Below are positions 27,776 to 42,214 of a DNA stretch of 64,000 bases, piece after piece. Under the pieces are notes generated by a model. The model had not been told where the DNA came from. It saw only the letters and a list, made by a program, of their open reading frames with translations, and ran no database searches. The stretch comes from Advenella incenata (GTDB lineage: Bacteria; Pseudomonadota; Gammaproteobacteria; Burkholderiales; Burkholderiaceae_B): assembly GCF_004217095.1 (NCBI RefSeq), contig NZ_SHKO01000005.1, forward strand, positions 62,001 through 126,000, written 5' to 3'. Position numbers and translations under genes: made by a program. Each line of letters starts with the position of its first letter. Position 1 is the stretch's first letter.

Positions 27776-27838
27776 GCTATTGAGTTTTGCTATTGAGTTT
27801 TGCTGTTGGGTTTTGCTGTTGGGTTTTGCTATTGCGTC
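27774..27838. repeat. Tandem 13-bp repeat spanning the D-aminoacylase stop codon
   Basis: Five consecutive 13-bp units of consensus TTGCTRTTGRGTT start at 27774, 27787, 27800, 27813 and 27826. Units 1 and 2 are identical, units 3 and 4 are identical to each other and differ from 1-2 at two positions, and unit 5 diverges in its last four bases. The D-aminoacylase stop (27829-27831 on the minus strand) lies in unit 5, and unit 1 abuts the terminator stem. Confidence 0.85.
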
Positions 27839-29301
27839 ACCCGAGCCGGCAGGCCTTCACGACGCAGTACCCTGCCCGGGCGTTGTCCACTCGGCTTGCC
27901 ATCCTCCCACACAACTTTGCCGTTGACCAGCACAGTGCTGATGCCAATGGCAGCGGCCACAGGCTGAGCGAACGTTGCCGCCTCAGCCACCGTCTGTGCA
28001 TCAAACAGCGTGATATCGGCAAACGCCCCCTGCCGAATCACGCCACGGTCGGTCAGGCCGAACTTGCCTGCAGTCAACCCGCTCATCTTATGCACTGCCT
28101 TCTCCAGCGAAAACAGCCCCAGGCCACGGCTGTAATGCCCCAGCACCCGTGGAAAGCTGCCCCATAGTCGGGGATGAGGCTTTTCATCATGCGGCAGGCC
28201 ATCGGAGCCGATCATCGTGTCATCAAACTGCAGAATGCGCTGTACGTCGGCGTCATCCATCCGATAGTAAATCGCACCGGCGGGCAACAACTTCTCAATG
28301 GCCTCTTCGGTGCTTATATTCAATTGGCTTGCGATCTGGTCCAAGTCCATCCCGGCCATCTGCGGCAGGCCTTTTGACCAGGTCACCGTGACCCGTGTCG
28401 CATTGGCCACCAGCTTTGGTGACAGGATGGTAGACGACGCATCGTAGGGATAGCAATCAAGACAAATAGGCTGCCTGGTCATATGATCTGCGATATACGC
28501 CAGCGTTTCGGCCGAACGACCGTGATTCTGAACGCCAACCACCTTGTGATGGGAAATCACAACGGGCACCCCAACCTGCCGCCCGATCAGGAACGATTCT
28601 TCCAGTGACTCGATGACACGATCGCCTTCATCGCGCATATGCGTGCAATAAATACCGCCATAGCGCGCCAGGGGGGCACATACGTCGATCACTTCCTGCG
28701 TGGGCGCAGCCACCGCCGGCGGATAGACCAGGCCAGTGGACACCCCAATGGCGCCAGCCTCCATGGCTTCGACCACCAGTTCCTGCATCGCTGATATTTC
28801 ACTGTCGGTTGCCGCTCTGGTGACGTCATCCATTGTTGCAACGCGCAGGGTCGAATGGCCGACCAGCATGGCGCAGTTGGTGGCGGCCGGGCTGGCGCTC
28901 AGTTCGCTAACGTATTGCGCGAAGCTGCGAAACCGGAACCAGCCGCCTTGTTCATCCAGCAGATTCAGGGGCGGTGTTACCGGGTCCGGAATGTCCCGCG
29001 GCATTGGCGCCAGAGAAATGCCGCAATTGCCGCCAATCACGGTTGTGATTCCCTGGCTTACCTTGGGCGCCATATCCCCATCTGACAGCATCAGTCTGTC
29101 ATCGTGGGTATGGGCATCGATGAACCCCGGGCAGACAATCAGCCCGCTGGCATCAATCACTTTATCTGCCGTGGCTTGCGACAAATCGCCGATTTGCGCG
29201 ATGCGCTCGCCCAGGATGGCAACGTCAGCGGAAAAACGCGCGCTGCCAGTGCCGTCGACCACATCGCCATTTACAATCAAAACATCATAATGTGCACTCA
29301 T
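27829..29301 (-). CDS. N-acyl-D-amino-acid deacylase (D-aminoacylase)
   Basis: A 490-aa amidohydrolase-superfamily enzyme that removes the acyl group from N-acyl-D-amino acids. The pattern of D-aminoacylases is complete: DAHTHDD (His64, His66), GNCG with the metal-ligand Cys93, CTHMRDE (His221), ISHHK (His251/252) and GSDGLPH with the catalytic Asp367; these match in spacing the Cys/His/His/Asp set of the Alcaligenes enzyme. It is the last gene of a long minus-strand operon with a Dpp-type importer and a D-amino-acid dehydrogenase, which supports a role on imported D-residues. The C-terminus runs into a 13-bp tandem repeat. Confidence 0.93.
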   Translation of the reverse strand: MSAHYDVLIVNGDVVDGTGSARFSADVAILGERIAQIGDLSQATADKVIDASGLIVCPGFIDAHTHDDRLMLSDGDMAPKVSQGITTVIGGNCGISLAPMPRDIPDPVTPPLNLLDEQGGWFRFRSFAQYVSELSASPAATNCAMLVGHSTLRVATMDDVTRAATDSEISAMQELVVEAMEAGAIGVSTGLVYPPAVAAPTQEVIDVCAPLARYGGIYCTHMRDEGDRVIESLEESFLIGRQVGVPVVISHHKVVGVQNHGRSAETLAYIADHMTRQPICLDCYPYDASSTILSPKLVANATRVTVTWSKGLPQMAGMDLDQIASQLNISTEEAIEKLLPAGAIYYRMDDADVQRILQFDDTMIGSDGLPHDEKPHPRLWGSFPRVLGHYSRGLGLFSLEKAVHKMSGLTAGKFGLTDRGVIRQGAFADITLFDAQTVAEAATFAQPVAAAIGISTVLVNGKVVWEDGKPSGQRPGRVLRREGLPARVTQ

Positions 29302-29347
29302 TTCTGGCCTCTAAAATTTTTGGGCATCGTGGGAGAATAGGCATCGC

Positions 29348-31036
29348 TCACGCCGGCAATTCGGCCTGATCCCCTGCTTCGGACACGGCACGAAAATTCT
29401 GGAAATCCCAGTGCCTGCCCGGTGCAGCATCGATCAGCGATCGGGTGTAGGGTTGCGTTGGCGCCGTCAAGACAGTATGGGCCTTGCCCGATTCGACAAT
29501 TTTTCCCTGTTGCATAACGATGATGGAATCGCAAATCTGCGCAGCGACTCGCAAGTCATGTGTAATAAACAACACACCGACTCCCGTGCGTTCGCGCACT
29601 TCATCCAGCAGCGCAAGCACCTGTGCCTGAACCGACACATCCAGCGCAGACACCGCCTCGTCCGCGACCAGGATATCGGGTTCCAGCGCCAGCGCCCTGG
29701 CTATGCAGATACGCTGGCGTTGCCCACCGGAAAATTGATGAGGATATCGCTGCAATGCGTCTTTAGTCAGACCCACAAGCTGCATCAATGCAGCCGCCTT
29801 GTCCATCGCGGCACCTTTTGATGCGCCGAAATTGAGCAATCCCTCGATGATCGAATCGCCCACGGTCATGCGCGGATTCAGGGAGCGATAGGGATCCTGA
29901 AAGACAATCTGGATACGCTGGCGCATGGGCCGCAACTGGCTGCCCGAAAGCTGCGCAATATCCCGGTCCTTGATATGGATCTGACCCGCACTCGGTTGCA
30001 GCAGCCTGACGATACAGCGTGCAACGGTGGATTTGCCCGAGCCGGACTCCCCCACAATCCCGACAATTTCCCCACGACTGAGCGTCAGGTTGATATTGTT
30101 GGCCGCAGTGATATGGCGTCCGGTTCCCCATAGCCTTTTCTCGGAATAGGTCTTGACCAGACCCGAGACGTCCAGCACCTTCTCCCCGTTGTTCTGCTCA
30201 CGCTGCTGGGGCACCAGGCTGGGGACCGAGGACACCAGCATGCGACTGTACGCATGTGTGGGGTTTCTTAAGATAGCGTCACGCGTTCCTGTTTCCATGA
30301 CCTCGCCCTTGTTCATCACCACAATCCGGTCGGCGATTTCTGCAACCACGCCAAAATCATGCGTGATGAACAGCACGGCCATATTGTTTTTTATCTGAAG
30401 TTCACGGATCAGCAGCAAAATCTGCTTCTGGGTGGTGACATCCAGCGCCGTGGTCGGTTCATCGGCAATCAGCAGCCGGGGCTGCAGAATCAGCGCCATT
30501 GAAATCACAACCCGTTGCCGCTGACCGCCAGACAACTGGTGCGGATACGCGTCGTAGATCCGCTCAGGATCGGGCATATGAACCGACTCGAGCATAAGCA
30601 ATACCGCCTGACGGCGTTGCTTTGCAGACATAGTGCTATGGATGCGCAGCACCTCGTCAATCTGGCGCCCCACTTTCTGCACAGGATTGAGCGCAGTCAT
30701 CGGTTCCTGGAAAATCATCGACATGGTGGTGGCTCGCAGCTCGCGCAGGCGCTTTGCACTGGCTTTGAGTACGTCTTCGCCATCGAGCAGGATGCTACCC
30801 TTGCACGCCTGCAGACTGTCTTCGCCCAGCAAACCCATCACGGTATAGGAGGATACCGATTTGCCGGACCCCGACTCGCCCACCACACACAGCGTTTCAC
30901 CCGCAAATACATCAAAACTGATGTTATTGACGACGCGTCTTTCGGGACTTGCGCCGGCAACCCGCACCGACAGATCGCGTACCCGCAGCACCGGTTCGGC
31001 TGCATTTTCCGTGCTTTTCATAGTGTCTTGACTCAT
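29348..31036 (-). CDS. Dipeptide-type ABC transporter ATPase, fused DppD-DppF form
   Basis: A 562-aa protein with two nucleotide-binding domains in tandem. Domain 1 has Walker A GESGSGKS (53-60), signature LSGGQ (168-172) and Walker [13 protein letters not shown]; domain 2 has Walker [10 protein letters not shown] (329-337), FSGGQRQR and [12 protein letters not shown]. Each is followed by the oligopeptide/dipeptide C-terminal extension, so the protein replaces separate DppD and DppF subunits. Note the second Walker B Glu is present (DEA). The start overlaps the permease stop by 4 nt. It powers the importer encoded by the next three genes. Confidence 0.95.
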
Positions 31037-31941
31037 GATTTTTTCGCCATTCTTGGATCCAGCACATCACGTAATACATCGCCCAGGATATTGACGCAGA
31101 GCAACGTCAGTGCGAGCAGGATACCGGGATACAGGATCAGACCCGGCAACAGGCGAAAATACATGCGCCCCTCGGACATCATATTGCCCCACGATGGAAT
31201 CTCTGGCGGCAGCCCGGCGCCCAGGAAGCTTAAGGTCGCCTCAGTAAGAATGGCGGCAGCAAAAATATAGGTGCCCTGCACAATCAGCGGTGCAATCGTA
31301 TTGGGAATCATATGACGCCACAAAATAGTCCGCACTCGGGTACCCAGCGAAACAGCTGCCTCTACATAGGGTTCGGCGCGCACCGACAGAATCACGCCAC
31401 GCACCAGCCGCACCACCCGCGGAATTTCGGGAATCGTAATAGCCACCAGGACCGTGACCAGGCTGCCGCCGGTCAGCGACACCAGGGCAATGGCCAGCAG
31501 GATACCGGGAATCGCCATGATGCCGTCCATCACCCGCATGATGATGCCATCGGCAAATCTGAAATAACCCGCAATCACCCCGATGAACAAGCCAGCAATC
31601 AGGCTCATCACAGTCGCGCCGATACCAACGATCAGCGAGACGCGGGCGCCATACAATGCACGCGAATAGGTATCGCGTCCGAAAGCATCGGTTCCCAGCC
31701 AGTGCGCGGACGACACTTTGGCCAGCCTTTCAGCCGGATTGATGGCCACCGGGTCAACAGTGCCAAGTAACGGCGCGCATACGGCCACAATAATGATAAG
31801 CACAAACATTACAAATGCAATCAAGACCGGAATACTGCCGAGCGCCGCGCGCAGTTGGCCGGGCAAAGTCGAATAATGTTCCGCAATGGGCTGCCCTGGG
31901 GCCGAAGCCGGCAGCGTTTCTGAAGTGAGTGGGACAGTCAT
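31033..31941 (-). CDS. Dipeptide-type ABC transporter permease (DppC-like)
   Basis: A 302-aa permease with the OppC/DppC layout: an N-terminal helix at ~residues 38-60, then LGTDAFGRDTYSRALYGARVSLIVG (the typical sequence before the binding-protein-dependent transport domain) and a core of five helices containing the EAA-like loop AVSLGTRVRTILWRHMIPNT. It heterodimerises with the DppB-like permease encoded 9 bp upstream. Part of the D-amino-acid/peptide operon. Confidence 0.95.
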   Translation of the reverse strand: MTVPLTSETLPASAPGQPIAEHYSTLPGQLRAALGSIPVLIAFVMFVLIIIVAVCAPLLGTVDPVAINPAERLAKVSSAHWLGTDAFGRDTYSRALYGARVSLIVGIGATVMSLIAGLFIGVIAGYFRFADGIIMRVMDGIMAIPGILLAIALVSLTGGSLVTVLVAITIPEIPRVVRLVRGVILSVRAEPYVEAAVSLGTRVRTILWRHMIPNTIAPLIVQGTYIFAAAILTEATLSFLGAGLPPEIPSWGNMMSEGRMYFRLLPGLILYPGILLALTLLCVNILGDVLRDVLDPRMAKKS

Positions 31942-31950
31942 GGTAGTCCT

Positions 31951-32892
31951 TCAATAACGGATTCGTGGATCGAAAACCGTATACAGCAGATCGACAATCA
32001 GATTGATCAGGATATACACGATGGAAAACAGCAGGATCAGTCCCTGGATAACCGGATAGTCGCGAGCGAGCACCGCTTCGACAACCAGCCGCCCCAGGCC
32101 AGGCAGGTTGAAAACCGATTCGGTAACCACGACGCCGCTGATCAGGGACGCAATGCCTATGCCGATGACCGTGACAATGGGTACGGCTGCGTTACGCAAG
32201 GCGTGCCGCATCAGGACCGCTTTTTCTTTCAGGCCCTTGGCGCGTGCAGTGCGAATATAGTCTTCGCCCATGACTTCGATAATGCTGCTGCGTGTGATGC
32301 GAGCGATCAGTGCCACGTAAATAGCGCTTAGCGCCAGCGTGGGCAGAATCAATCGCTGCGCAAAAGGCAGCAGCCCTGCCGACAGCGGCTTGTACCCCTG
32401 TACCGGCAGCCAGTCCAGCTGTATAGCGAAAAAATAGATCAGTAAATAGCCAACGACAAAGGTGGGAATCGAAAACCCCAGCACAGACAGGCTCATGATC
32501 AGGCGGTCCAGCAGTTTGCCTTGCCGCCATGCAGCAATGACGCCCAACGGGATGGCAATGACTACCGTCAGCACGATGGTTGACACGGCCAGCGCCAGCG
32601 TCGGCCCCATGCGCCCTGCAATCATCTGCAGCACCGGCGTGCCCGACAATAGCGAGACGCCAAGGTCGCCCTGCAGCAACCGTCCGACCCAGACGACAAA
32701 TTGTGTATAAATCGGCTGATCCAGGCCCATGCTCTGACGGATCTGCTCAAGCTGAGCCGCAGTGGCATCGTCTCCTGCGATGATGGCGGCAGGATCTCCC
32801 GGTGTGAGCCGAAGAATGGCAAAGATGACGATGGCAACCATCACGATAACCGGTAGTGTGGCCAGAAGCCGACGGGCGATATAGGTAATCAT
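31951..32892 (-). CDS. Dipeptide-type ABC transporter permease (DppB-like)
   Basis: A 313-aa permease beginning MITYIARRLLATLPVIVMVAIVIFAILRLTPGDPAA, diagnostic of OppB/DppB, with six helices and the cytoplasmic EAA loop DYIRTARAKGLKEKAVLMRHALRNA near residue 195-220. It follows the binding-protein gene after only 7 bp and precedes the DppC-like gene. Inner membrane, channel half of the importer. Confidence 0.95.
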   Translation of the reverse strand: MITYIARRLLATLPVIVMVAIVIFAILRLTPGDPAAIIAGDDATAAQLEQIRQSMGLDQPIYTQFVVWVGRLLQGDLGVSLLSGTPVLQMIAGRMGPTLALAVSTIVLTVVIAIPLGVIAAWRQGKLLDRLIMSLSVLGFSIPTFVVGYLLIYFFAIQLDWLPVQGYKPLSAGLLPFAQRLILPTLALSAIYVALIARITRSSIIEVMGEDYIRTARAKGLKEKAVLMRHALRNAAVPIVTVIGIGIASLISGVVVTESVFNLPGLGRLVVEAVLARDYPVIQGLILLFSIVYILINLIVDLLYTVFDPRIRY

Positions 32893-32899
32893 GGCTGAC

Positions 32900-34495
32900 T
32901 CACTTATCCGACTTTTTCAGGTTCCAGAACACGGTAACCGGCGAAGGCAATACATTGGACAGCTTGGTACTGTACGCGGCAGGGATGAGAAATTGGCCCA
33001 GTGGCGCAACCACGCCTTCGTCTATCACCAGCTTTTGCAGTTGGGCGGTAATCTTCTTTCGCTCGGCGTCATCTTTGGCTCGTGCAAATTCAAGCCGCAA
33101 CGCTTCGATTTGCGGCACATCCGGCCAGCCGGCCCAGGCTTTTTTCCCGTTTGAGGCGATCGTCGTATTGCCAAACGGGTCGCCGCTGGTGGCCAGAATG
33201 CTATATGTGGAAAAAATGCTCCATCCGCCTTCGGCCGGTGATTTCTGATTGCTTTGCTGGGTCGCAACCGTCTGCCAGTCCATGGTCTTCATATCAACCT
33301 TGAAACCGGCCTTGCGCAAGGCATCGCCAATCACGACCGGTTGCGCAGACAGCATGGCAATATCCGTCGGCTGCAAAATCACAACCGGCGTGCCATCGTA
33401 ATTGGCCTGCTTGAGCAGCGCCTTTGCTTTTTCTATGTTGGCCGGCACAACCATCTCTTTGCCATAGTCATTTTCATATGGGTTGCCACATCCGAAGACA
33501 GCGGCACACGGCTTGTAATATTCCGGGTTGCCAACCAACGCCTTAAGGACATTTTCCTGCCCTACCGCGTACATCGCGGCCTGGCGAATGAGCCGGTTAT
33601 TAAACGGCGCATGCAAATGATTGAACCGGAAGTACGTCCAGGCGCCCAGCTTGTCCAGCACCTCAACCTTGATGTTTTCCTGGTCCTGAACCATGGGCAG
33701 CAAATCAAAGGGCACTTGCTGGATAAAATCAATTTCATCATTCATCAAGGCATTGATGGGTGTCATCTGGTCCGGCATGGCAACCCATTGCACACGCTCA
33801 ACATTAACCACCTTGCCGCCGGCCGTCCAGCTGGCCGGTTCACTGCGCGGCACATAGTCATTATTGCGTTCGTATACGACCCGCAGCCCCGGCCTGAACT
33901 CGGACTGGACAAACTTGAACGGTCCGGACCCGATGTATTCGGTAATCGGCTTGGAAGACGGTGTTTCGGCAATGCGCTTGGGCATCATGAACGCTGGACG
34001 CGAACTGAGCTTGCCCAGACCTGATAGCAATAATGTGGTGGGTTCCTTCAGGCTGATTTCAAATACTTTGCTGTCGATCACCTTGATATCGGCCACCATC
34101 GTCATCAATACCTGACCGGTAGAGTCCTTTTCGGCCCAGCGCTTGATGGAGGCGACACAGTCCTCTGAAGTCACCGGCGCGCCGTCGTGCCATTTGAGCC
34201 CCTCGCGCAAGGTAAAGGTGTAGGTCTTGCCATCGGCCGATTCCTTCCAGTCTGCCATCTGCGGCTGGATCTTGAAGCTGGAGTCAGTCCCCAACAATGT
34301 GTCGTAAATCATGTAGCCATGGTCGCGTGTCATGAATGCGGTACTGATGACCGGATCCATGACACGCAGTCCTGATTGCATCACTGCTGTGACGGTTTGC
34401 GCCTGAACGGCCGGCACGCACGACAAGGCGGCAGCCAGTGCCATACCCAGTGCCATATTTCTCAAAGCGGTCAATTGCTTGGCCTTGTGCATCAT
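32900..34495 (-). CDS. Family 5 periplasmic solute-binding protein (peptide-type)
   Basis: A 531-aa extracellular solute-binding protein of the DppA/OppA class. After MMHKAKQLTALRNMALGM the signal peptide ends at VQAQ; the mature part has KWHDGAPVTSEDCVASIKRW, the family-5 hallmark, near residues 105-125. AGGAGAAATACC precedes ATG 34495; the 92-codon open stretch upstream is antisense noise over the intergenic region and dadA-like gene end. It should capture the substrate for the Dpp-type permeases downstream, probably a D-residue peptide or N-acylated amino acid given its neighbours. Confidence 0.94.
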   Translation of the reverse strand: MMHKAKQLTALRNMALGMALAAALSCVPAVQAQTVTAVMQSGLRVMDPVISTAFMTRDHGYMIYDTLLGTDSSFKIQPQMADWKESADGKTYTFTLREGLKWHDGAPVTSEDCVASIKRWAEKDSTGQVLMTMVADIKVIDSKVFEISLKEPTTLLLSGLGKLSSRPAFMMPKRIAETPSSKPITEYIGSGPFKFVQSEFRPGLRVVYERNNDYVPRSEPASWTAGGKVVNVERVQWVAMPDQMTPINALMNDEIDFIQQVPFDLLPMVQDQENIKVEVLDKLGAWTYFRFNHLHAPFNNRLIRQAAMYAVGQENVLKALVGNPEYYKPCAAVFGCGNPYENDYGKEMVVPANIEKAKALLKQANYDGTPVVILQPTDIAMLSAQPVVIGDALRKAGFKVDMKTMDWQTVATQQSNQKSPAEGGWSIFSTYSILATSGDPFGNTTIASNGKKAWAGWPDVPQIEALRLEFARAKDDAERKKITAQLQKLVIDEGVVAPLGQFLIPAAYSTKLSNVLPSPVTVFWNLKKSDK

Positions 34496-34581
34496 GGTAT
34501 TTCTCCTGTACTCGATATAAGGGGCTGGCGCACTTGACGCAAGGTCAACTGTAGCCAGTACACGTGCTACTGCATCCTGCA

Positions 34582-35829
34582 TTAAGGAGCAAAAAGGTTG
34601 TCGGCAATCGTCGTAGGAACGCTGCAAAGCCGGTCCGCAAGCAAGGCGGCGCTGCCTGCGGCAAGCGTAAAGCCAAGCGCGCCCTGGCCTGCATTGATCC
34701 AGAGGTTGCGTAGCGGCGCCTGACCAATCAAAGGTTTGCTGTCCGGGCGCGCCGGGCGTAACCCCGCCCATGCCACGGGTTCATCAGCCGGGCGCAGCGC
34801 CGGTAAATAGTGCTCGACCGCCTGCTTGAGACTGGCGATACGCCGGGGATCAATGTTGTTCGAGCGATCGCCTATGTCCACCATGCCGGCAACGCGCAAG
34901 CGGTTACCCAGTCGCGCGTATACGACTTTGTTGTGCACATCGCTGACACTGACGCGGGGCGCCTCGCTTTGCGCGGTCAATTCGTAAGTGAGGCTGTATC
35001 CCTTGAGCGGGTAAATATAGGGATTGAAGCCCGCCTGGCGGGCCAATGCCTGCGCGCCAATACCATTGGCAATGACATAGGCGTCTGCCGTCATATCGCC
35101 AGCCTGCGTCTGCAACCGCGTAACGCGGTCATTCTCCTGATGCAGGCGCATGACAGGCGTGTTATAGAGAAATTCAACTTTCTGCCGCCCCTGGCGCAAT
35201 TTGCGTTCCAGTTCGCCGCACAGCTTCAGGCAATCGCCGGCATCTTCACTACGAGTGAAAATGCCGCCGGCAATCCGCTCCTGAATGCCACGCAATGCAG
35301 GCTCCAGTTCCAGGCAACGCTTGCGGTCCAGTGCTACTTGCGTGGAACCCAGCGCTGCCTGATAGTCCATCTGTTTTCTGGCGGCGGCATAAGAGCCGGC
35401 ATCCTGATACACCAACAGCTTTCCGGAACTGCTGAAGTCAAACGACAACATTTCATCTGCAATGAGCTGGTGCATCATTTGCCTGCTGTACAAGCCCAGC
35501 GACAGCAGTTCTGCGGTCGTCTGCTGGCTCTTTTTAGTGCGGCAGGCGGCCAGAAAGGCCATGGCCCAGCGCCATTGCTGCGGATCGGCTCGCAATCGCA
35601 ATGACAAGGGTGATTGGGCACTAAGCAGCCATGCAGGCAACTTGGGCAGGACCGCCGGCTCGGCCAGTGGCGCCACGAAGCTGTAGCTCAATTGGGCGCC
35701 ATTGGCCTTGCTGGTCATCTGCCCAGGGCCTGCGCAGGCATCAACAACCGTGACCTGATGTCCTTTTTTTGCAAGATAGTAGGCGCTGGTCATGCCAATA
35801 ATGCCGGCGCCGATCACAATAATATGCAT
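34582..35829 (-). CDS. FAD-dependent D-amino-acid dehydrogenase (DadA-like)
   Basis: A 415-aa DAO-family flavoprotein. It starts MHIIVIGAGIIGMTSAYYLAKKG (FAD-binding GxGxxG at 7-12) and ends with WAGLRPARPDSKPLIGQ...LWINAGQGALGFTLAAGSAALLADRL, the pattern of bacterial DadA. It oxidatively deaminates D-amino acids to 2-oxo acids and ammonia, passing electrons to the respiratory chain. It lies between the TPP-enzyme gene (13 bp away) and the ABC importer genes, which makes it the step between deacylation and 2-oxo-acid use. Related glycine or sarcosine oxidases are possible alternatives. Confidence 0.92.
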   Translation of the reverse strand: MHIIVIGAGIIGMTSAYYLAKKGHQVTVVDACAGPGQMTSKANGAQLSYSFVAPLAEPAVLPKLPAWLLSAQSPLSLRLRADPQQWRWAMAFLAACRTKKSQQTTAELLSLGLYSRQMMHQLIADEMLSFDFSSSGKLLVYQDAGSYAAARKQMDYQAALGSTQVALDRKRCLELEPALRGIQERIAGGIFTRSEDAGDCLKLCGELERKLRQGRQKVEFLYNTPVMRLHQENDRVTRLQTQAGDMTADAYVIANGIGAQALARQAGFNPYIYPLKGYSLTYELTAQSEAPRVSVSDVHNKVVYARLGNRLRVAGMVDIGDRSNNIDPRRIASLKQAVEHYLPALRPADEPVAWAGLRPARPDSKPLIGQAPLRNLWINAGQGALGFTLAAGSAALLADRLCSVPTTIADNLFAP

Positions 35830-35842
35830 GCTGGCTCCCGCA

Positions 35843-37519
35843 TCATTGGCTTAACATTGCGCGCTCACGCAATTGATCAATCGTTGCCGATGCAGATATA
35901 TATTGCAAACTGGTGCGCACCGAAATCACGGCTGGGCCACCTGCGGCGAGGGCGGTGCGCAGCGCCGCATCAATCTGCGAACTGTCATCAACGCGAATAC
36001 CCAGTGCACCGAAATTGCGCGCCACTGCGGCAAAATCCGGATTACGAAGATCCGTTGCGCTCACCCGTTGCGGAAAATGCTTTTCCTGATGCATGCGGAT
36101 CGTGCCATAGGCGCCGTTGTCGGAGATCACCAGTATCGGATGCGCACCATACTGGATGGCGGTGGCCAGTTCGTTGCCCGTCATCAGAAACCCGCCATCG
36201 CCTACAAAGCAGATGACCTGTCGGTCCGGATAGCGCAAGCTGGCCGCAACGGCAGCCGGCACCCCGTAGCCCATGGCGCCCGAAGAGGGGGCAACCATTT
36301 GTCTGCCACCGCCAAAACGCATCAGGCGCTGGACCCACCCGCCAAAATTGCCGGCATCAATCGTAATAATGGCGTCATCGGCCAGCAAACGGTCGGCAGC
36401 CTGCACCACACTCGAAAACACGACGCCATCTTCTGCATCGGCGGGCCCGTCCCAGTCTGTCAGCGATTGGGCCACCTGGTGCAGTTGCCGACTCCACACC
36501 TGATGGTCGGGATCTATTGTCGCCGGAGCAAAGTCGCACAGATCCACAAGAAACGATACGGGATCGGCCACCAGCCCCACGTCTGTCCGCCGCAACGCTC
36601 CCAATGCGGATGCGTCCGGCCAGACATGAATTAACGGTTGCAGCGGTTGCGGCGCGGCAGGAAAACGGTACCCTTGCGTGGTCACATCCCCCAGGCGGGT
36701 GCCAACAGCGATGACCAGATCGGCCTGGGCAACCGCCTGCGCCAGCGCGGCCGGCGCGCCATAGGCCAGGTGCCCGGCGAACAGTGGATGATCATTGGCA
36801 AGCAGATCGGCATGCCTGACTGCTGTTGCGACCGGCACACCAAAGGCCTGGGCAGTACACTGCAGCGCGGTCTGTCCTGCTTCGTTCTTGAGCAGTCCGC
36901 CGGCAATAATCAGTGGCCGGCGCGCCTGTTCAATCATGCTGGCAACTCGTTTGAGCGATAGGTCCGATGCGCCTGCTACCGGCAAAGGAAGACGATACGC
37001 CCTTTCGGTGTCGACCATGTCTTCGAGCATATCCTCTGGCAACGCAACCACAACCGGCCCCGGTGTGCCGCTGCACGCATAATGAAACGCCGTGGCAACG
37101 CACTCGGCCAGCCGTTGCGCATCATTGACCTCAACAACCCATTTGGCCATGCTGCCGAACACCTGCCCGTAGTCCACCTCCTGGAAGGCTGCCATATGAC
37201 GATGCGCCCGTTCGACCTGGCCGATAAAGAGCACCAGCGGCACTGCGTCCTGCTGCGCCGTGTGCACGGCAATGGCCGCGTTCATGGCGCCCGGCCCACG
37301 ACTGACCAGTGCGATACCCGGCCGCCCGGTAAGGCGCGCGTCGGCCACGGCCATGAAGCCGGCGCCCCCTTCATGACGGCAGGTCACCACGTCAATCCCC
37401 GCGTGATCCGAGAGCGCATCCAGCGCACTCAAATAGCTCTCTCCGGGCACGCAAAAGACTCGTTCTACATCATGCGCACTTAACACTTCAATCAATACAT
37501 CCGCTGCTCTTCGCTTCAT
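35843..37519 (-). CDS. Thiamine-diphosphate enzyme (acetolactate synthase / decarboxylase family)
   Basis: A 558-aa three-domain TPP enzyme. The activating glutamate is Glu50 in TCRHEGGAGFMAVA; the central domain spans ~190-330; the cofactor motif FVGDGGFLMTGNELATAIQYGAHPILVISDN lies at ~435-465. It resembles the acetolactate-synthase-like group that also includes benzoylformate and other 2-oxo-acid decarboxylases. A regulatory ilvN partner is absent, so a catabolic decarboxylase or ligase acting on the 2-oxo acid made by the adjacent D-amino-acid dehydrogenase is more likely than branched-chain synthesis. Its start overlaps the TetR gene stop by 4 nt. Confidence 0.9.
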   Translation of the reverse strand: MKRRAADVLIEVLSAHDVERVFCVPGESYLSALDALSDHAGIDVVTCRHEGGAGFMAVADARLTGRPGIALVSRGPGAMNAAIAVHTAQQDAVPLVLFIGQVERAHRHMAAFQEVDYGQVFGSMAKWVVEVNDAQRLAECVATAFHYACSGTPGPVVVALPEDMLEDMVDTERAYRLPLPVAGASDLSLKRVASMIEQARRPLIIAGGLLKNEAGQTALQCTAQAFGVPVATAVRHADLLANDHPLFAGHLAYGAPAALAQAVAQADLVIAVGTRLGDVTTQGYRFPAAPQPLQPLIHVWPDASALGALRRTDVGLVADPVSFLVDLCDFAPATIDPDHQVWSRQLHQVAQSLTDWDGPADAEDGVVFSSVVQAADRLLADDAIITIDAGNFGGWVQRLMRFGGGRQMVAPSSGAMGYGVPAAVAASLRYPDRQVICFVGDGGFLMTGNELATAIQYGAHPILVISDNGAYGTIRMHQEKHFPQRVSATDLRNPDFAAVARNFGALGIRVDDSSQIDAALRTALAAGGPAVISVRTSLQYISASATIDQLRERAMLSQ

Positions 37520-38178
37520 TGTCTGCTTCCGTCAAAAAATTCTTCGCCCTTGACCCGCTCAAGATCGGCCAATGCCTGTGTTCGCAGATTTTCAGGAAAA
37601 CCGGCGTCAATGATCTGCTCAAGCGCCGCATAAAGCCGTTGCCAGCCGGCATTCGTGCGTAACGACACACCCAGGAAATGGCTTTCGGTCCTGGATCGCA
37701 ACATCATGTACAGCACACCCGCCAGCATGATGCTTACCACTGCCGGCACGTCCAGTTCCTGCGTCAGCCCGTCTACCCGATCAATGAACGACCTTGCCGC
37801 CTTCTCGCGGCGCTGCGCCAGTTGCTCGGTTACCTCATTCTGTTCAATCAGCTCCCAGCGCCGGATTTCCCGCAAGCTTTCGCTGCCTGCGAGCGCTTCG
37901 ATCTGGGCATGCAGCATCGACAAAATCAAGACGGCAGGCGTCTGCTGGCTGGACTCTTCATCCTTGATCAGCCCGGCGCGTGCCGTCCAGAAATCCTGTT
38001 CCTGCATCCAGGCAAGCAACAATCCCGGCATACCATCAAAGTAGCGATAGATCAGTTCCTTGCTCACGCCTGCCCGTTTGGCCACTGCGTTAACGCCCAC
38101 GCCCACCATCCCGGTTTCATTGATCTGTTCTTCCAGCGCGTTCAAAAGCTTTCTCTCGGTGTTCTCACGACGCGACAT
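37516..38178 (-). CDS. TetR/AcrR-family regulator
   Basis: A 220-aa regulator with an N-terminal TetR helix-turn-helix (~residues 8-55; VNAVAKRAGVSKELIYRYFDGMPGLLLAWM) and a helical ligand-binding C-terminal domain. It sits inside the operon, overlapping the DUF6963-like gene by 14 nt and the TPP-enzyme gene by 4 nt, so it is co-expressed with the genes it probably controls. A TetR-style palindrome, TGACCGGGTGGTCA, lies 57 bp upstream of the operon's first gene, consistent with autoregulation. Confidence 0.93.
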   Translation of the reverse strand: MSRRENTERKLLNALEEQINETGMVGVGVNAVAKRAGVSKELIYRYFDGMPGLLLAWMQEQDFWTARAGLIKDEESSQQTPAVLILSMLHAQIEALAGSESLREIRRWELIEQNEVTEQLAQRREKAARSFIDRVDGLTQELDVPAVVSIMLAGVLYMMLRSRTESHFLGVSLRTNAGWQRLYAALEQIIDAGFPENLRTQALADLERVKGEEFFDGSRQ

Positions 38179-39094
38179 GCACTGCCCTTCTCATGACGAC
38201 TGTGGCCGAGGCGGGGTCCAGGCTGCGCACAAAGCAGCCATCCTGCACCTGTCCGATCAGCTCGCTGATCACATGCCCGATCAGGCGAGCACCCTGCCAG
38301 ACTGGTGTACCGAGATAAACCGCAGTAAAACGACCTGACATCTGTGATATCTGCGCAGCAGCCGTTTCAATCAGCGCAATGTTTCCGTCAGCATCAAGCT
38401 GGATCCGATCGCTTTGTGCCGTTTGCAGCGCAACACCCTGCGGCAGCGACAAAAACTGATATTCGCTGGTATCACCACCGAGGCAGCCCCACGCCAGACT
38501 GCCAACGGCATCTGCTGTATCACGCATGAAATAAATCGAGTTGTGCAATATTGCCAGGCTCCTGCCCCCTTCACTGCGGTGAAAGCTGCCAAGATCCGCT
38601 CTTGAAGCCACTCGCTGGCTGTTGCCCCAGCCAATACGGCCCTGGGCATCAACGGCAATCAGCCCGGCGTCGCTTTGGTCATTGGCATGCAGTACGGCGT
38701 CCACAGCGTGTTGTGGCATTTCGCCGCTAGCCAGTCGCCGCAACACGGCACGATTCAAGGGCTCGCCGTCGCTTCCCGCACGGTTGGGCAGGCGATGACC
38801 GGATACCAGCCCGATGCCATCGAAGCCGGGCAAATACTGCTGCAGCGGCTCGGGCCTGTCGGGCCCGCTGGAAATGGCTGCAGCGCGTGTGGCCAGCAGC
38901 CATTCGTCTGGAATGGCCAGTTTTGCGGCCCCACCCCTCTGGGTCACGCAGTGGCATACTTTGCCATCGTGCAACATGGCTGCAAATACGGCAAAGCCGC
39001 CAATGGCGCCTCTTCCCAGCAATTCTGCCGCAAGCACCGCTGCACGTACTGATTCTCCCGCATTGGCGCCGCTGGCGGCTATTCCAATTGTCAT
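38165..39094 (-). CDS. Conserved protein of unknown function (DUF6963-like)
   Basis: A 309-aa protein beginning MTIGIAASGANAGESVRAAVLAAELLGRGAIGGF, with SSGPDRPEP, GIGLVSGHRLPN and DAGLIAVDAQGRIGWGNS as conserved-looking blocks. I recall this protein style as an uncharacterised family (DUF6963) found near amino-acid or peptide transport genes; the name is from memory. The repeated Gly-rich blocks and sites such as SDAGLIAVD resemble asparaginase/Ntn-hydrolase-like proteins, which is only an impression. The start at 39094 fits the family N-terminus, though no clear Shine-Dalgarno is present and 29 open codons lie upstream. It is the first gene of the D-amino-acid operon. Confidence 0.75.
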   Translation of the reverse strand: MTIGIAASGANAGESVRAAVLAAELLGRGAIGGFAVFAAMLHDGKVCHCVTQRGGAAKLAIPDEWLLATRAAAISSGPDRPEPLQQYLPGFDGIGLVSGHRLPNRAGSDGEPLNRAVLRRLASGEMPQHAVDAVLHANDQSDAGLIAVDAQGRIGWGNSQRVASRADLGSFHRSEGGRSLAILHNSIYFMRDTADAVGSLAWGCLGGDTSEYQFLSLPQGVALQTAQSDRIQLDADGNIALIETAAAQISQMSGRFTAVYLGTPVWQGARLIGHVISELIGQVQDGCFVRSLDPASATVVMRRAVHVAS

Positions 39095-39500
39095 AAAAAA
39101 GTCCATTGCAAAGTTCGTTGAGCGACAAAACAGATGCGTCATGCCAAATGTGACCGGGTGGTCATATTTAAATGCTAACACTATGGCATTCGAAATAACA
39201 AGCGTATTTTTCTAGGGAATACCCGTACCGATTGGACTCGCAGGACGCAATCGGACCGGACAAAAAAGAACCCCTTGCAGATCAACTCAAGCATTAATCG
39301 TGCCAATTAGTTTGCAGTACTTAGAAAGTCCCGCACTGATCTTTTTTGAACAGGTGCAGCTGTGCTGGCCAAGCCGTGGCACAGCAACCGCAATAGTCAG
39401 CAAATGATGTCTATTTACGTCAATATGACGCTAAAGCCTTGCGCCATCGGCAAATGCCAGTTGTAATTAACCGATCAAGCAAACCGCAAGGGTCCGGCCA
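39095..39500. promoter_or_regulatory. 406-bp divergent intergenic region between the D-amino-acid and betaine operons
   Basis: It contains the TetR-type palindrome at 39151-39164 close to the minus-strand operon. The remainder, toward the betaine transporter gene, is AT-richer (for example 39170-39215 and 39290-39345) and may hold its promoter, but I find no convincing -35/-10 pair or other dyad. Confidence 0.5.
39151..39164. promoter_or_regulatory. TetR-type operator candidate
   Basis: TGACCGGGTGGTCA has 5-bp perfect arms (TGACC/GGTCA) around GGGT, the style of many TetR-family operators. It lies 57 bp upstream of the DUF6963-like start and so at the head of the operon that encodes a TetR regulator as its second gene. 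Confidence 0.55.
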
Positions 39501-41333
39501 ATGTTACAGCGCATCGTTTTTGTCTTTTTGCTCTTTTTCTCTGCCCCTGCCCTTGCTGCGTGCGACAGCCCCGTCAAGTTCGCCGCGCTGACCTGGGAAA
39601 GTGGTCAATTTACCAGCGCTGTATTGCGGCTGATCGCAGAACGCGGCTACCAGTGCAAGACCACCGAGATTCCTGGCTCGGGCCCTGCCCAGGAAAATGC
39701 CCTGTCGCAAAATGACATTCAGGTGATTGGCGAAGTCTGGGTCGGGCGTTCCGAAGTCATGAACAAGGCGCTGCTGGAGAACAAGGCCGCCATGGTGGGC
39801 GACACGCTCAAAGGCGGGGCCCAGCAGGGCTGGTACGTGCCCGATTATGTCTGGGAGCAAAATCCGCAACTGCGTTCCTACAAGGATCTCGAGCGCTTTT
39901 CACAGTTGTTTCTGGACTCGGCAAGCGGCCCCAAACCTCGCTTCATGAACTGCCCGTCGGGCTGGACATGTGAAATATTCAATACCCGCCTGTTGCGTAC
40001 GACCGGCCTGGACAAGACATTCGATAATGTTCACCCCGGTACCGGTGCGGCACTGGATGCGGAAATTTCCTCGGCCTATGAACAGAAGAAACCCCTGCTC
40101 TTTTATTACTGGCAGCCTACCGGGCTGATGGCCAAGTACACCTTCAAGGCGCTGGAATTTCCAAAAAATGAATCGGAATGCTGGGCCAGCCTGCTGGAAA
40201 AGGACGGCGACAAAAACTGTGTCACCGGTTTTCCTGTATCCAATTTGTCAATTGCTGTTTCCACGCCGTTCAAGGAGCAGCATCCGGATCTGATGCAGTT
40301 CTTTGAAAAAATCCAGTTCACCGCCGATCAATTGAACGGCGCTATTTTGCAGATGACCGAGAGCAAACGCGACGGCACCCGGCAGGCAGAACAATTTATC
40401 AAGGAACATCCCGAAGTCTGGCAGCAATGGGTCAGCCCCGAAGCGGCAGACCGGCTGCAGGCATGGACTGGGCAAACAGCAGCGGTAAGCAGCATCTTCC
40501 CTGACTGGTCCATCCAGGACAAGCTCAATAGCGGCCTCAAATCTGTCGTGGGTACCTATGGTGAATCCTTTCGGCAGGTCAGTGGATTTCTTACCCGCTA
40601 TTTGCTCAGTCCGACGGTGCAGGCACTGGCGGCAATTCCAGCATGGCTGATGATTCTGCTCACGGCAGCGTTGGCCTGGCATAGTACACGCTCAATCATT
40701 TTTGCAGTGGCGTGCGCTATCGGGCTGTATGTAATTGGGGCCTTTGGCTTGTGGGCCGCATTGCTGCAGACGCTGGCGCTGTTGATTTGCGCAGTCATTA
40801 TTACAGTGGTCATTGGGATACCCATAGGCATCTTCGTAGCGGCCCGCCCGCGCTTCTATCGTGTGCTGCAACCGGTGCTGGATGTCATGCAGACTATGCC
40901 AAGCTTTGTCTATCTCATTCCGGTGCTGATGCTTTTTGGCCTGGGTAATGTGCCCGCGCTTTTCGCAACGGTGATTTACGCCATCGCACCGCTGATCCGA
41001 CTGACCGCACTGGGTATTTTGCAAATCAGTCGCGAAATGCATGAAACCGGCACGGCATTTGGCACCAATCGCTGGCAAATGCTTCGCTGGGTCATTCTGC
41101 CCCTGGCCAAGCCCAGCATCATGGCGGGCATCAACCAGGCGGTCATGATGTCCCTCTCGATGGTTGTACTGGCCTCCATGATCGGCGCGCCGGGTCTTGG
41201 CGAGCGAGTGCTGGAAGCGGTGCAGACACTGAACGTTGGCCAGGGCGTACAGGCGGGCAGCGCGATTGTCATTCTGGCAGTGATTATTGACCGCATCACC
41301 CAGGCCTACGGCAACCGCAGGAGAACACGATGA
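39501..41333 (+). CDS. Betaine/proline-type ABC transporter, fused binding protein and permease
   Basis: A 610-aa fusion. Residues 1-19 are a signal peptide (ends ALAA), ~20-325 an OpuAC/ProX-type quaternary-amine binding domain (LTWESGQFTSAVLRLIAERGYQCKT; EVWVGRSEVMNKAL), and ~370-605 a ProW-type permease domain (LQPVLDVMQTMPSFVYLIPVLMLFGLGNVPALFATVIYAIAPLIRLT). The binding domain is therefore tethered to the outer face of the channel. It is followed by the ATPase gene with a 4-nt overlap. The system probably imports glycine betaine, choline or similar compounds as osmoprotectants or as feedstock for the sarcosine oxidase pathway. Confidence 0.93.
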   Translation: MLQRIVFVFLLFFSAPALAACDSPVKFAALTWESGQFTSAVLRLIAERGYQCKTTEIPGSGPAQENALSQNDIQVIGEVWVGRSEVMNKALLENKAAMVGDTLKGGAQQGWYVPDYVWEQNPQLRSYKDLERFSQLFLDSASGPKPRFMNCPSGWTCEIFNTRLLRTTGLDKTFDNVHPGTGAALDAEISSAYEQKKPLLFYYWQPTGLMAKYTFKALEFPKNESECWASLLEKDGDKNCVTGFPVSNLSIAVSTPFKEQHPDLMQFFEKIQFTADQLNGAILQMTESKRDGTRQAEQFIKEHPEVWQQWVSPEAADRLQAWTGQTAAVSSIFPDWSIQDKLNSGLKSVVGTYGESFRQVSGFLTRYLLSPTVQALAAIPAWLMILLTAALAWHSTRSIIFAVACAIGLYVIGAFGLWAALLQTLALLICAVIITVVIGIPIGIFVAARPRFYRVLQPVLDVMQTMPSFVYLIPVLMLFGLGNVPALFATVIYAIAPLIRLTALGILQISREMHETGTAFGTNRWQMLRWVILPLAKPSIMAGINQAVMMSLSMVVLASMIGAPGLGERVLEAVQTLNVGQGVQAGSAIVILAVIIDRITQAYGNRRRTR

Positions 41334-42214
41334 ATACAGAGGCCATTGACGCCACCTTGGGCACAGTGCCAACCGGCGCCGGCAGCCCGGCAAGAGACGA
41401 ACATTTCATTCGTCTTCAGAATATCAACAAGGTGTTTGGCGAGCGCCATAGCAAAGCCATGAAGTTACTGCATCAGGGATCGGACAATGAAGCAATTACC
41501 GCTGAAACCGGCTGCCATGTAGCGTTAAGAAATATCAATCTGGACATTCCTTCCAATGGCATTTATTGCATCATGGGCTTGTCGGGCTCGGGCAAATCCA
41601 CCCTGCTGCGCCATATCAATCGCCTGATTGATCCGGACACCGGTACCGTTCAAATCCAGGACGTGGACGTGACTGCTTTGTCGATACCCGATCTGCAGAA
41701 GTTTCGCCAGAAGCGCATCGCCATGGTCTTTCAGCACTTTGGTCTGTTGCCGCATTTTACCGTGCAGCAGAATGCCGAATTTGCCCTGCGCGTACGCGGT
41801 GTGCCCAAGCCTGAGCGCGCAGAACAGGCGCGCTACTGGCTCAACGAAATGGAGCTGTCGGGCTACGAGGCACATTATTACGATGAGCTCTCCGGTGGCA
41901 TGCGACAGCGGGTCGGCCTGGCGCGTGCATTGGCAGCCGGCACCGATATCCTGCTGATGGACGAACCGTTTTCCGCACTTGATCCGCTGATCAGGCGCAA
42001 GTTGCAGACACTGCTGCTGAATTTGCAGGATCGGCTGAACAAGACAATTGTGTTTATTACCCATGATGTGGAGGAAGCTCGAACACTGGGCGGTACTGTT
42101 GCCCTGCTCAATCAGGGCCGCCTGATTCAACAAGGTAGTTTGGAGCAGATGACGGCAAATCCGGCAGATGAATATGTGGCCAGTTTTTTGACTTCCTCGA
42201 CAGAGGCGTCATGA
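41330..42214 (+). CDS. Betaine/proline-type ABC transporter ATPase (ProV/OpuAA-like)
   Basis: A 294-aa ATPase with the ProV-specific N-terminal segment FGERHSKAMKLLHQG, Walker A GLSGSGKST (83-91), signature LSGGMRQR, Walker B DILLMDEPFSALDP and the switch His in FITHD. It ends soon after the nucleotide-binding domain (YVASFLTSS), so it lacks the C-terminal tandem CBS domains that sense ionic strength in OpuA/ProV of ~400 aa. Start and stop overlap both neighbours by 4 nt (ATGA). Confidence 0.94.
   Translation: MNTEAIDATLGTVPTGAGSPARDEHFIRLQNINKVFGERHSKAMKLLHQGSDNEAITAETGCHVALRNINLDIPSNGIYCIMGLSGSGKSTLLRHINRLIDPDTGTVQIQDVDVTALSIPDLQKFRQKRIAMVFQHFGLLPHFTVQQNAEFALRVRGVPKPERAEQARYWLNEMELSGYEAHYYDELSGGMRQRVGLARALAAGTDILLMDEPFSALDPLIRRKLQTLLLNLQDRLNKTIVFITHDVEEARTLGGTVALLNQGRLIQQGSLEQMTANPADEYVASFLTSSTEAS

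What the first reader, a model, noticed from the sequence alone, without database searches (positions are those of the whole stretch)
27829..39164. Nine-gene operon for uptake and breakdown of N-acyl-D-amino acids or D-peptides
Seen: D-aminoacylase with complete active site, FAD D-amino-acid dehydrogenase, a stand-alone TPP enzyme, full Dpp-type ABC importer (with fused ATPase), a TetR regulator and a DUF6963-like protein, all minus strand with overlaps of 4-14 nt or gaps under ~90 bp. Known: D-aminoacylases free D-amino acids and DadA-like enzymes turn them into 2-oxo acids. Inferred: the order import, deacylation, deamination, TPP-dependent decarboxylation or carboligation makes a complete catabolic route for D-residue compounds (for example from other microbes' peptidoglycan or antibiotics). 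I do not know of this exact gene set being described as a system.
Basis: partly seen in the sequence, partly recalled or inferred. Interest (0 to 1): 0.72.

Follow-up and report, generated by a model that had tools for sequence, protein, structure and literature searches.

The report
D-residue scavenging operon with predicted hydrolase
A bacterium related to Advenella carries a nine-gene operon, probably under one switch, that likely imports and breaks down a compound containing a mirror-image (D) amino acid, and its uncharacterised first gene looks like a new kind of amide-cleaving enzyme.

Summary
In detail: nine minus-strand genes, coding part 27829-39094, with -14 to +86 nt between them. 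DUF6963's start is more likely 39094 than 39164; a 16-bp operator lies at 39150-39165. The genes are not scattered in relatives: of 36 TetR-bearing clusters examined, 16 hold all nine in one order, 19 drop or swap modules, and one is cut by its contig end. All 36 carry GTGACC-N4-GGTCAC with at most 1 mismatch, as expected of a TetR-controlled unit.

DUF6963 is predicted to fold like an Ntn hydrolase and starts Met-Thr, so Thr2 is a likely nucleophile. The D-aminoacylase keeps its metal ligands and carboxylate anchors but has a different side-chain pocket, with Arg347: 25 of 25 readable Dpp/lone-SBP-type copies, 0 of 8 MalFGK-type copies, 0 of 24 homologues outside such clusters.

Best reading: regulated catabolism of an N-acylated or peptide-bound D-amino acid, probably not the usual hydrophobic kind. 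Substrate, stereochemistry, repression and all enzyme activities are untested. New variant of a known kind.

The parts
39150..39165 (-). predicted TetR operator, GTGACC-N4-GGTCAC with 1 mismatch, 55 bp upstream of the DUF6963 start codon
   Evidence: at most 1 mismatch in 36 of 36 TetR-bearing clusters, 0 of 6 distant TetR-less DUF6963 loci; binding untested
38165..39094 (-). DUF6963 + DUF7259 protein, 309 aa, predicted Ntn hydrolase with Thr2 as nucleophile after Met removal
   Evidence: no sequence match in the PDB at E <= 1
37516..38178 (-). TetR-family regulator, 220 aa, predicted local repressor
35843..37519 (-). TPP-dependent enzyme, 558 aa, NCBIfam PRK08199 subfamily; 2-oxo-acid decarboxylase or carboligase (reaction inferred)
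34582..35829 (-). FAD D-amino-acid dehydrogenase (DadA-like), 415 aa; another, higher-scoring DadA lies elsewhere in the genome
32900..34495 (-). substrate-binding protein, SBP_bac_5 family, 531 aa
31951..32892 (-). DppB-like permease, 313 aa
31033..31941 (-). DppC-like permease, 302 aa
29348..31036 (-). fused double ATPase (best NCBIfam profile YejF-like, under its cut-off), 562 aa
27829..29301 (-). D-aminoacylase-family metallo-amidohydrolase, 490 aa, pocket Val192/Val255/Ala299/Arg347

Best explanation
This is a TetR-repressed catabolic operon for a compound that carries an amide-linked D-alpha-amino acid (an N-acyl-D-amino acid or a short peptide with a D residue). Inferred steps: the inducer frees the operator at the promoter from TetR; the SBP/DppBC/fused-ATPase importer brings the compound in; DUF6963, an Ntn hydrolase using Thr2, cleaves one amide bond; the D-aminoacylase-family metal enzyme frees the D-amino acid; the DadA-like flavoenzyme turns it into a 2-oxo acid; and the TPP enzyme decarboxylates or ligates that acid when the host has no other outlet. 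Shown here: gene content, order and conservation, the operator's co-occurrence with the TetR gene, a predicted fold nearest to Ntn hydrolases, intact metal and carboxylate positions, and a pocket different from known D-aminoacylases. Not shown: substrate, any activity, stereochemistry, repression.
For: Synteny: 16 of 36 TetR-bearing clusters hold all nine genes in one order, in Advenella, Bordetella, Paenalcaligenes, Microvirga, Aquamicrobium and Mesorhizobium records and in unnamed relatives. Operator: 36 of 36 TetR clusters; 12 of 15 genomes have one site and three have two, with none for the reversed control; 22 sites in 27 loci against 0-10 for 12 permuted-arm palindromes. The site follows the operon's first gene: in 4 of 4 genomes tested with the other importer it lies before that operon's binding-protein gene, and in L101 and L103 a second, divergent binding-protein gene has its own copy. 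Ntn fold: two AF2 models (mean pLDDT 91.4 and 87.9) match PurF, GlmS, aspartylglucosaminidase and EgtC first in the PDB; weak Asparaginase_2 match in 16 of 27 members; M1-T2 in 27 of 27 rows. Acylase: metal ligands and K253/Y284/S290/R378 kept wherever readable in cluster copies; Arg347 in 25 of 25 readable Dpp/lone-SBP-type copies (L143, and L095 without TetR hit, included), 0 of 24 homologues outside such clusters.
Against: The Foldseek matches are remote (best E 7e-5; TM by query length at most 0.45; 8-16% identity for the Ntn rows), and the geometry around Thr2 was not inspected, because no coordinates were given. M1-T2 invariance is partly selected: one of the two scan patterns and my start finder contain MTIG. 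L143 has TetR-TPP-DadA-acylase with the operator but no DUF6963, so DUF6963 is not always needed. Seven clusters have a binding protein but no permease hit beside it. Three DUF6963 loci (L031, L040, L095) have the operator without a TetR hit. One permuted-arm palindrome gave 10 hits. The changed pocket could also mean a substrate that is not a plain D-amino acid (compare OngB). Nearly all members were found through DUF6963, so co-occurrence is conditional on it. The TetR-operator link is correlative.
Confidence: 0.62

Rival explanations
1. The acylase is an ordinary hydrophobic N-acyl-D-amino-acid deacylase like that of Alcaligenes faecalis, and DUF6963 is a non-enzymatic accessory. The operon is then a plain D-aminoacylase operon.
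For: 56% identity to 1m7j and ligands kept; homologues with the FMLM pocket and Dpp-like ATPase hits beside them exist in relatives (L122-L124, L126).
Against: The four pocket residues named in PMC12017989 (Phe191, Met254, Leu298, Met346 in its numbering) are Val, Val, Ala, Arg here. DUF6963 has many invariant polar residues and a predicted enzyme fold.
Confidence: 0.17
2. The substrate is an oxidised amino sugar or other hydroxylated/acidic N-acetyl compound, as in the ong pathway for GlcNAc1A, rather than a D-amino acid.
For: OngB, also filed as D-aminoacylase, deacetylates only GlcNAc1A and has small/polar pocket residues (Ala, Ala, Gln, Gly; PMC12017989 passages). The cluster acylases have small residues at the first two positions. 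The Achromobacter-genus clusters use an importer whose binding protein is of the SBP_bac_1/8 families.
Against: The window protein scores nearer 1m7j (586 bits) than PpOngB (417 bits). No hexosaminidase and no sugar kinase over a cut-off among the nine; a DadA-type dehydrogenase stands in place of the deaminase OngC.
Confidence: 0.14
3. The genes are neighbours carried together by horizontal transfer without forming one pathway.
For: Modules are lost and swapped between clusters; Microvirga and Advenella copies are 62-83% identical, DUF6963 apart, which suggests transfer (inference).
Against: Overlapping reading frames, one shared operator, one order over 16 clusters, and retention of the same core when the importer is exchanged.
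Confidence: 0.05

Closest known systems
D-aminoacylase of Alcaligenes faecalis (AfDam, PDB 1m7j)
   Same: 56% identity over 475 aligned residues, same metal ligands and alpha-carboxylate anchors
   Different: side-chain pocket Val/Val/Ala/Arg instead of Phe/Met/Leu/Met (roles of the residues from PMC12017989 passages)
N-acyl-D-glutamate deacylase of Bordetella bronchiseptica (BbDam, PDB 3gip)
   Same: same family, 392 bits; also an Arg in the pocket
   Different: its Arg replaces Leu298 (PMC12017989 passages); here the Arg is at the Met346 position and the Leu298 position is Ala
ong cluster of Pseudoalteromonas (oxidative chitin use; PMC9537276, passages read)
   Same: acylase-family enzyme + amino-group removal + transport + own regulator in one cluster
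   Different: MurR/RpiR regulator, SSS-family inner-membrane transporter, deaminase, RidA protein, sugar kinase and hexosaminidase; no DUF6963, TPP enzyme or ABC importer is named in the passages read
Class II glutaminase domains, EgtC and other Ntn hydrolases
   Same: nearest solved structures to the predicted fold of DUF6963; nucleophile right after the start Met, as the C2A variant name of EgtC implies
   Different: Thr instead of Cys, extra DUF7259 domain, no sequence match in the PDB at E <= 1
DppBCDF with DppA1-A5 of Pseudomonas aeruginosa (PMC4206461, abstract and passages read)
   Same: several binding proteins (DppA1-A4 restored use; DppA5 behaved like the mutant) serve one permease, a model for the permease-less clusters
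   Different: here the binding protein sits with an acylase and DUF6963

Membership tests
D-aminoacylase (subtype V amidohydrolase) | metal ligands and catalytic Asp: His, His, Cys, His, His, Asp | tested here: met
   H64, H66, C93, H221, H251, D367; the roles of these positions are recalled in part
D-aminoacylase (subtype V amidohydrolase) | alpha-carboxylate anchors Lys, Tyr, Ser, Arg | tested here: met
   K253, Y284, S290, R378, by analogy with PpOngB Lys254/Tyr285/Ser291/Arg379 (PMC12017989 passages)
D-aminoacylase, AfDam type | hydrophobic side-chain cavity Phe191/Met254/Leu298/Met346 | tested here: not met
   Val/Val/Ala/Arg
N-acyl-D-glutamate deacylase, BbDam type | Arg at the Leu298 position | tested here: not met
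   Ala299 in the window; A, D, K, S, R or E in relatives of the Dpp/lone-SBP type
D-aminoacylase | hydrolysis of N-acyl-D-amino acids, D over L | not testable with these tools
   needs assay
Ntn hydrolase (DUF6963) | nearest solved structures are Ntn proteins | tested here: met
   50 of the 50 rows listed (783 matches at E <= 10) and ranks 1-29 of the 50 listed; remote scores
Ntn hydrolase (DUF6963) | four-layer alpha-beta-beta-alpha architecture | not tested
   no coordinates were given; only the secondary-structure string was seen
Ntn hydrolase (DUF6963) | Thr/Ser/Cys at the mature N-terminus, opening the first strand | tested here: met
   M1-T2 in 27 of 27 rows, strand 2-8; partly by selection, and Met removal is inferred
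Ntn hydrolase (DUF6963) | catalytic geometry and amidase activity | not testable with these tools
   no coordinates, no assay
D-amino-acid dehydrogenase (DadA, PRK00711) | score over the curated cut-off | tested here: met
   453 against 383 bits
Acetohydroxyacid synthase (TPP enzyme) | score over an acetolactate-synthase equivalog cut-off | tested here: not met
   325 against 538 for TIGR00118, the best such row of the 25 shown; PRK08199 671 against 539
ong (GlcNAc1A) pathway | sugar kinase and hexosaminidase in the cluster | tested here: not met
   none over a cut-off among the nine
TetR repressor with its own operator | conserved inverted repeat at the operon start | tested here: met
   a site in 36 of 36 clusters, upstream of DUF6963 in 27; binding not tested

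The most novel reading that the evidence does not exclude
DUF6963 is the founding member of a new Thr-nucleophile Ntn hydrolase family. With an Arg347-type acylase it makes a two-amidase pathway for one specific, as yet unknown D-residue natural product, with exchangeable importers and a single TetR switch, spread between alpha- and betaproteobacteria.
Probability: 0.42. Interest if true: 0.66.

Novelty: new variant of a known kind. Interest (0 to 1): 0.5.

Why it matters
It gives a testable role to an unknown protein family and defines a further pocket class among enzymes annotated 'D-aminoacylase', where the substrate cannot be read from the name. It supplies an operator by which the regulon can be recognised in other genomes, and it shows a catabolic core that keeps its hydrolases and regulator while exchanging its importer.

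Tried and rejected
Considered and rejected: chance clustering and scattered genes in relatives; a glycine- or sarcosine-oxidase identity for the flavoenzyme; acetohydroxyacid synthase as identity of the TPP enzyme. In one search the window reads GTRLGDVTT where 6lpi and 6dek read GARFDDR, but 1ozf (catabolic acetolactate synthase) lacks that Arg too, so this alone decides nothing. The sequence search of the PDB with DUF6963 found nothing at E <= 1. The scan called no sigma-70-like promoter before DUF6963; the TTGTTA/TAGCAT pair just before the operator is my reading by eye. Terminator-like sites were 15 against 12.2 expected; the nearest behind the acylase is at 27481-27468, inside the region of the next gene.

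Literature: ten searches (open-licence PMC only) listed no paper whose title or abstract start describes this gene set; only 15 of 172 and only 10 of 33 papers were listed. 'DUF6963' and 'DUF1028' gave 0 papers. Papers seen: PMC9537276 passages, PMC12017989 passages, PMC4206461 abstract and passages; others only as listing. The 2009 Cummings paper on D-amino-acid deacylation is not held; I know it only from the reference list and from recall, which is also the source of the idea that such enzymes may take L-Xaa-D-Xaa dipeptides.
Full report
What is there. Nine minus-strand genes with intact frames run from DUF6963 (38165-39094) to a D-aminoacylase (27829-29301), spaced -14 to +86 nt. The window lies in a 4.9-Mb genome; the nearest named hits are Advenella sp. 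FME57 and S44 (94% and 70% in DUF6963). No tRNA gene was found in the window. DUF6963 occurs once in this genome.

Start correction. Relatives share a start Met-Thr-Ile-Gly with dissimilar sequence before it. That places the window start at 39094. My start finder looked for this motif, and one of the two scan patterns contains it, so the sharing is partly selected; in L050 no such start was found. Less biased support: the mechanical ORF list gives exactly this start in L089, the Pfam profile begins at residue 2, and loci such as L025, whose residue before Met does not fit the first pattern, have it as well.

Conservation. A scan of genome contigs with the DUF6963 alignment gave 28 loci. Full nine in one order: window, L018, L020, L023-L027, L029, L030, L035, L038, L041, L044, L101, L103 (16 of 36). 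In the eleven of these the acylase runs off the 10-kb flank and is seen only in its first 274 residues or more. L032 lacks only TPP. L039 and L099 lack TPP, permeases and ATPase. L028, L033, L034, L036, L037, L042, L049 are DUF6963-TetR-SBP-acylase. L089-L094, L096, L097 are DUF6963-TetR-acylase-DadA with another importer. L143 is TetR-TPP-DadA-acylase without DUF6963. L100 shows DUF6963-TetR and then meets its contig end. So, without L100, TPP is not seen in 18 of 35, Dpp permeases in 18 of 35 and DadA in 7 of 35. L020, L044 and L103 have interrupted frames.

Nine DUF6963 loci show no TetR hit: L031, L040 (contig end), L095, and the distant L043, L045-L048, L050. In the distant ones DUF6963 lies beside Dpp-type importer hits in L043, L045, L046, L047 and L048, beside an acylase in L046, and right behind an Amidohydro_1 gene in L050. 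L095 keeps DadA, SBP and acylase; L031 has none of the cluster's other genes at high identity. Census: DUF6963 in 7 of 121 relatives and in 31 of 250 genomes of the family, 6 of 43 genera, own genome included; 0 of 14 control genomes. Because nearly all members were found through DUF6963, these association counts are conditional on it. Microvirga and Advenella-type proteins are 62-83% identical, DUF6963 50-52%, which suggests horizontal transfer; this is inference, as no housekeeping gene was compared, and the class names are recalled.

Operator. GTGACC-N4-GGTCAC with at most one mismatch occurs in 36 of 36 TetR clusters. In 27 it lies just upstream of DUF6963, in L143 upstream of TetR, and in the eight with another importer elsewhere. 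It is absent from 6 of 6 distant TetR-less DUF6963 loci, two of them short (L047, L050). Against a perfect rule: L031, L040 and L095 have the site without a TetR hit, and three of five stretches around other acylases have a one-mismatch site somewhere in 18-19 kb. Genome-wide, 12 of 15 genomes have one site and three have two with at most one mismatch to TGTGACC-N4-GGTCACA; the reversed control has none. Permuted-arm palindromes gave 0-10 hits in 27 loci against 22; the one with 10 is GACGCT.

In the eight clusters with another importer, L089 was typed by Pfam: two BPD_transp_1 permeases, an ABC ATPase and a divergent TctC-type gene with the site at its 5' end. The other seven have the site at the corresponding place, their divergent gene not typed. 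In four of the eight I fetched further upstream: the first gene is a binding protein of SBP_bac_1/8 type with a site before it, or at its listed start, exact in L106 and L107 and with one mismatch in L104 and L105. 'MalFGK-like' is my reading of these families. In L101 and L103 a second, divergent SBP has its own copy. This is the pattern expected of a local repressor; binding is untested.

DUF6963. AlphaFold2 gives mean pLDDT 91.4 and pTM 0.90 for the window protein and 87.9 and 0.77 for the divergent L046 protein. The 50 listed Foldseek hits for the first are all Ntn proteins: PurF, GlmS/GFAT glutaminase, aspartylglucosaminidase and EgtC (12 have E <= 0.001). For the second, ranks 1-29 are, and unrelated proteins with low probability come in from rank 30 (22 have E <= 0.001). 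Scores are remote. A weak Asparaginase_2 match appears in 16 of 27 members (best 0.0016; in the window protein under its cut-off) and DUF1028 in 1 of 27; the other families listed include several unrelated ones at similar E-values in one or two members. That Asparaginase_2 and DUF1028 are Ntn families is recalled. Invariant in 27 of 27 rows: M1, T2, E24, Q52, S76, G77, P78, R80, G99, H100, R101, N114, D142, R165, D167, N185 among others. I infer a Thr2 nucleophile exposed by methionine removal. The two models share most alignment rows and are not independent.

Acylase. 56% identical to 1m7j. PMC12017989 (passages) names the side-chain cavity of AfDam as Phe191, Met254, Leu298, Met346, of BbDam with Arg at the 298 position, and of PpOngB as Ala, Ala, Gln, Gly. 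Window numbering is one higher than AfDam's. The window has Val192, Val255, Ala299, Arg347. Arg347 is in 25 of 25 readable copies of the Dpp-type, lone-SBP and L143 clusters (L095 included; three more copies are cut before it), 0 of 8 of the clusters with the other importer (Ser), 0 of 1 distant (L046, Gln) and 0 of 24 other homologues. These 24 come from the 56 places, of which I read those with a fetched locus; for most, absence of the cluster was judged on about 4.4 kb. Position 192 is Ala or Val in all copies of the first type, but Ala also occurs in four of the 24. Position 299 varies, even to Asp and Lys. The positions for metal and alpha-carboxylate stay. So an N-acyl group on a D-alpha-amino acid remains the likely chemistry, with a side chain that is not the usual hydrophobic one; Arg347 suggests an acidic or strongly polar group (inference).

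Other enzymes. The DadA-like protein scores 453 bits (cut-off 383); another gene in the genome scores 496 and is the likelier housekeeping DadA. The TPP enzyme belongs to PRK08199, whose model names no reaction. Both are missing in some relatives, perhaps because general enzymes replace them.

How it works. Import, two hydrolyses, oxidation and 2-oxo-acid processing under one TetR switch is the reading that fits the anatomy. The permease-less clusters may lend their binding protein to a general Dpp permease, as several DppA proteins serve DppBCDF in P. aeruginosa (PMC4206461, abstract and passages). Every catalytic step is inferred.

Known or new. Deacylation followed by amino-group removal is known, for example in the ong cluster (PMC9537276 passages). 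This gene set, a DUF6963 role and the operator did not appear in the listings of the ten searches named under Tried and rejected. I rate it a new variant of a known kind.

Noticed in passing
L138:8783-13465 (G000:C1:1516788-1518233): The window's genome has a second acylase (70% identical, pocket Ser/Ala/Asn/Gln) beside two SBP_5-like hits, without TetR hit or operator.
   Followed up: partly
L038:1-6241: Back to back with the nine-gene cluster, Bordetella genomosp. 2 has a separate SBP-Dpp-ATPase-acylase set whose acylase has the Phe192/Met255 residues of the classical enzyme.
   Followed up: partly
L089:10002-18584, L104-L107: Clusters in the genus of an Achromobacter strain pair the same core with another ABC importer (SBP_bac_1/8 type) and a divergent TctC-type gene; operator copies lie at both (the TctC type was checked in L089 only).
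   Followed up: partly
L101:2010, L103:1510; G133:C2:100196: A second, divergent binding-protein gene with its own operator beside the clusters of the Paenalcaligenes genus; G133 also has a second site.
   Followed up: partly
L020: The same-genus copy in G007 is interrupted in DUF6963, TetR, DadA, DppB and DppC at once, which looks like a draft-sequence problem.
   Followed up: no
L037:6924-8399 and L048:11669-12973: Histidinol-dehydrogenase-family genes lie near DUF6963 in two loci of different genera.
   Followed up: no
G000:C4:146476-146493: A second operator-like site with 1 mismatch elsewhere in the genome, and the same in G121.
   Followed up: no
window 39501-42214: Divergent neighbour that reads by eye as a fused glycine-betaine-type binding protein/permease followed by its ATPase (not searched).
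   Followed up: no
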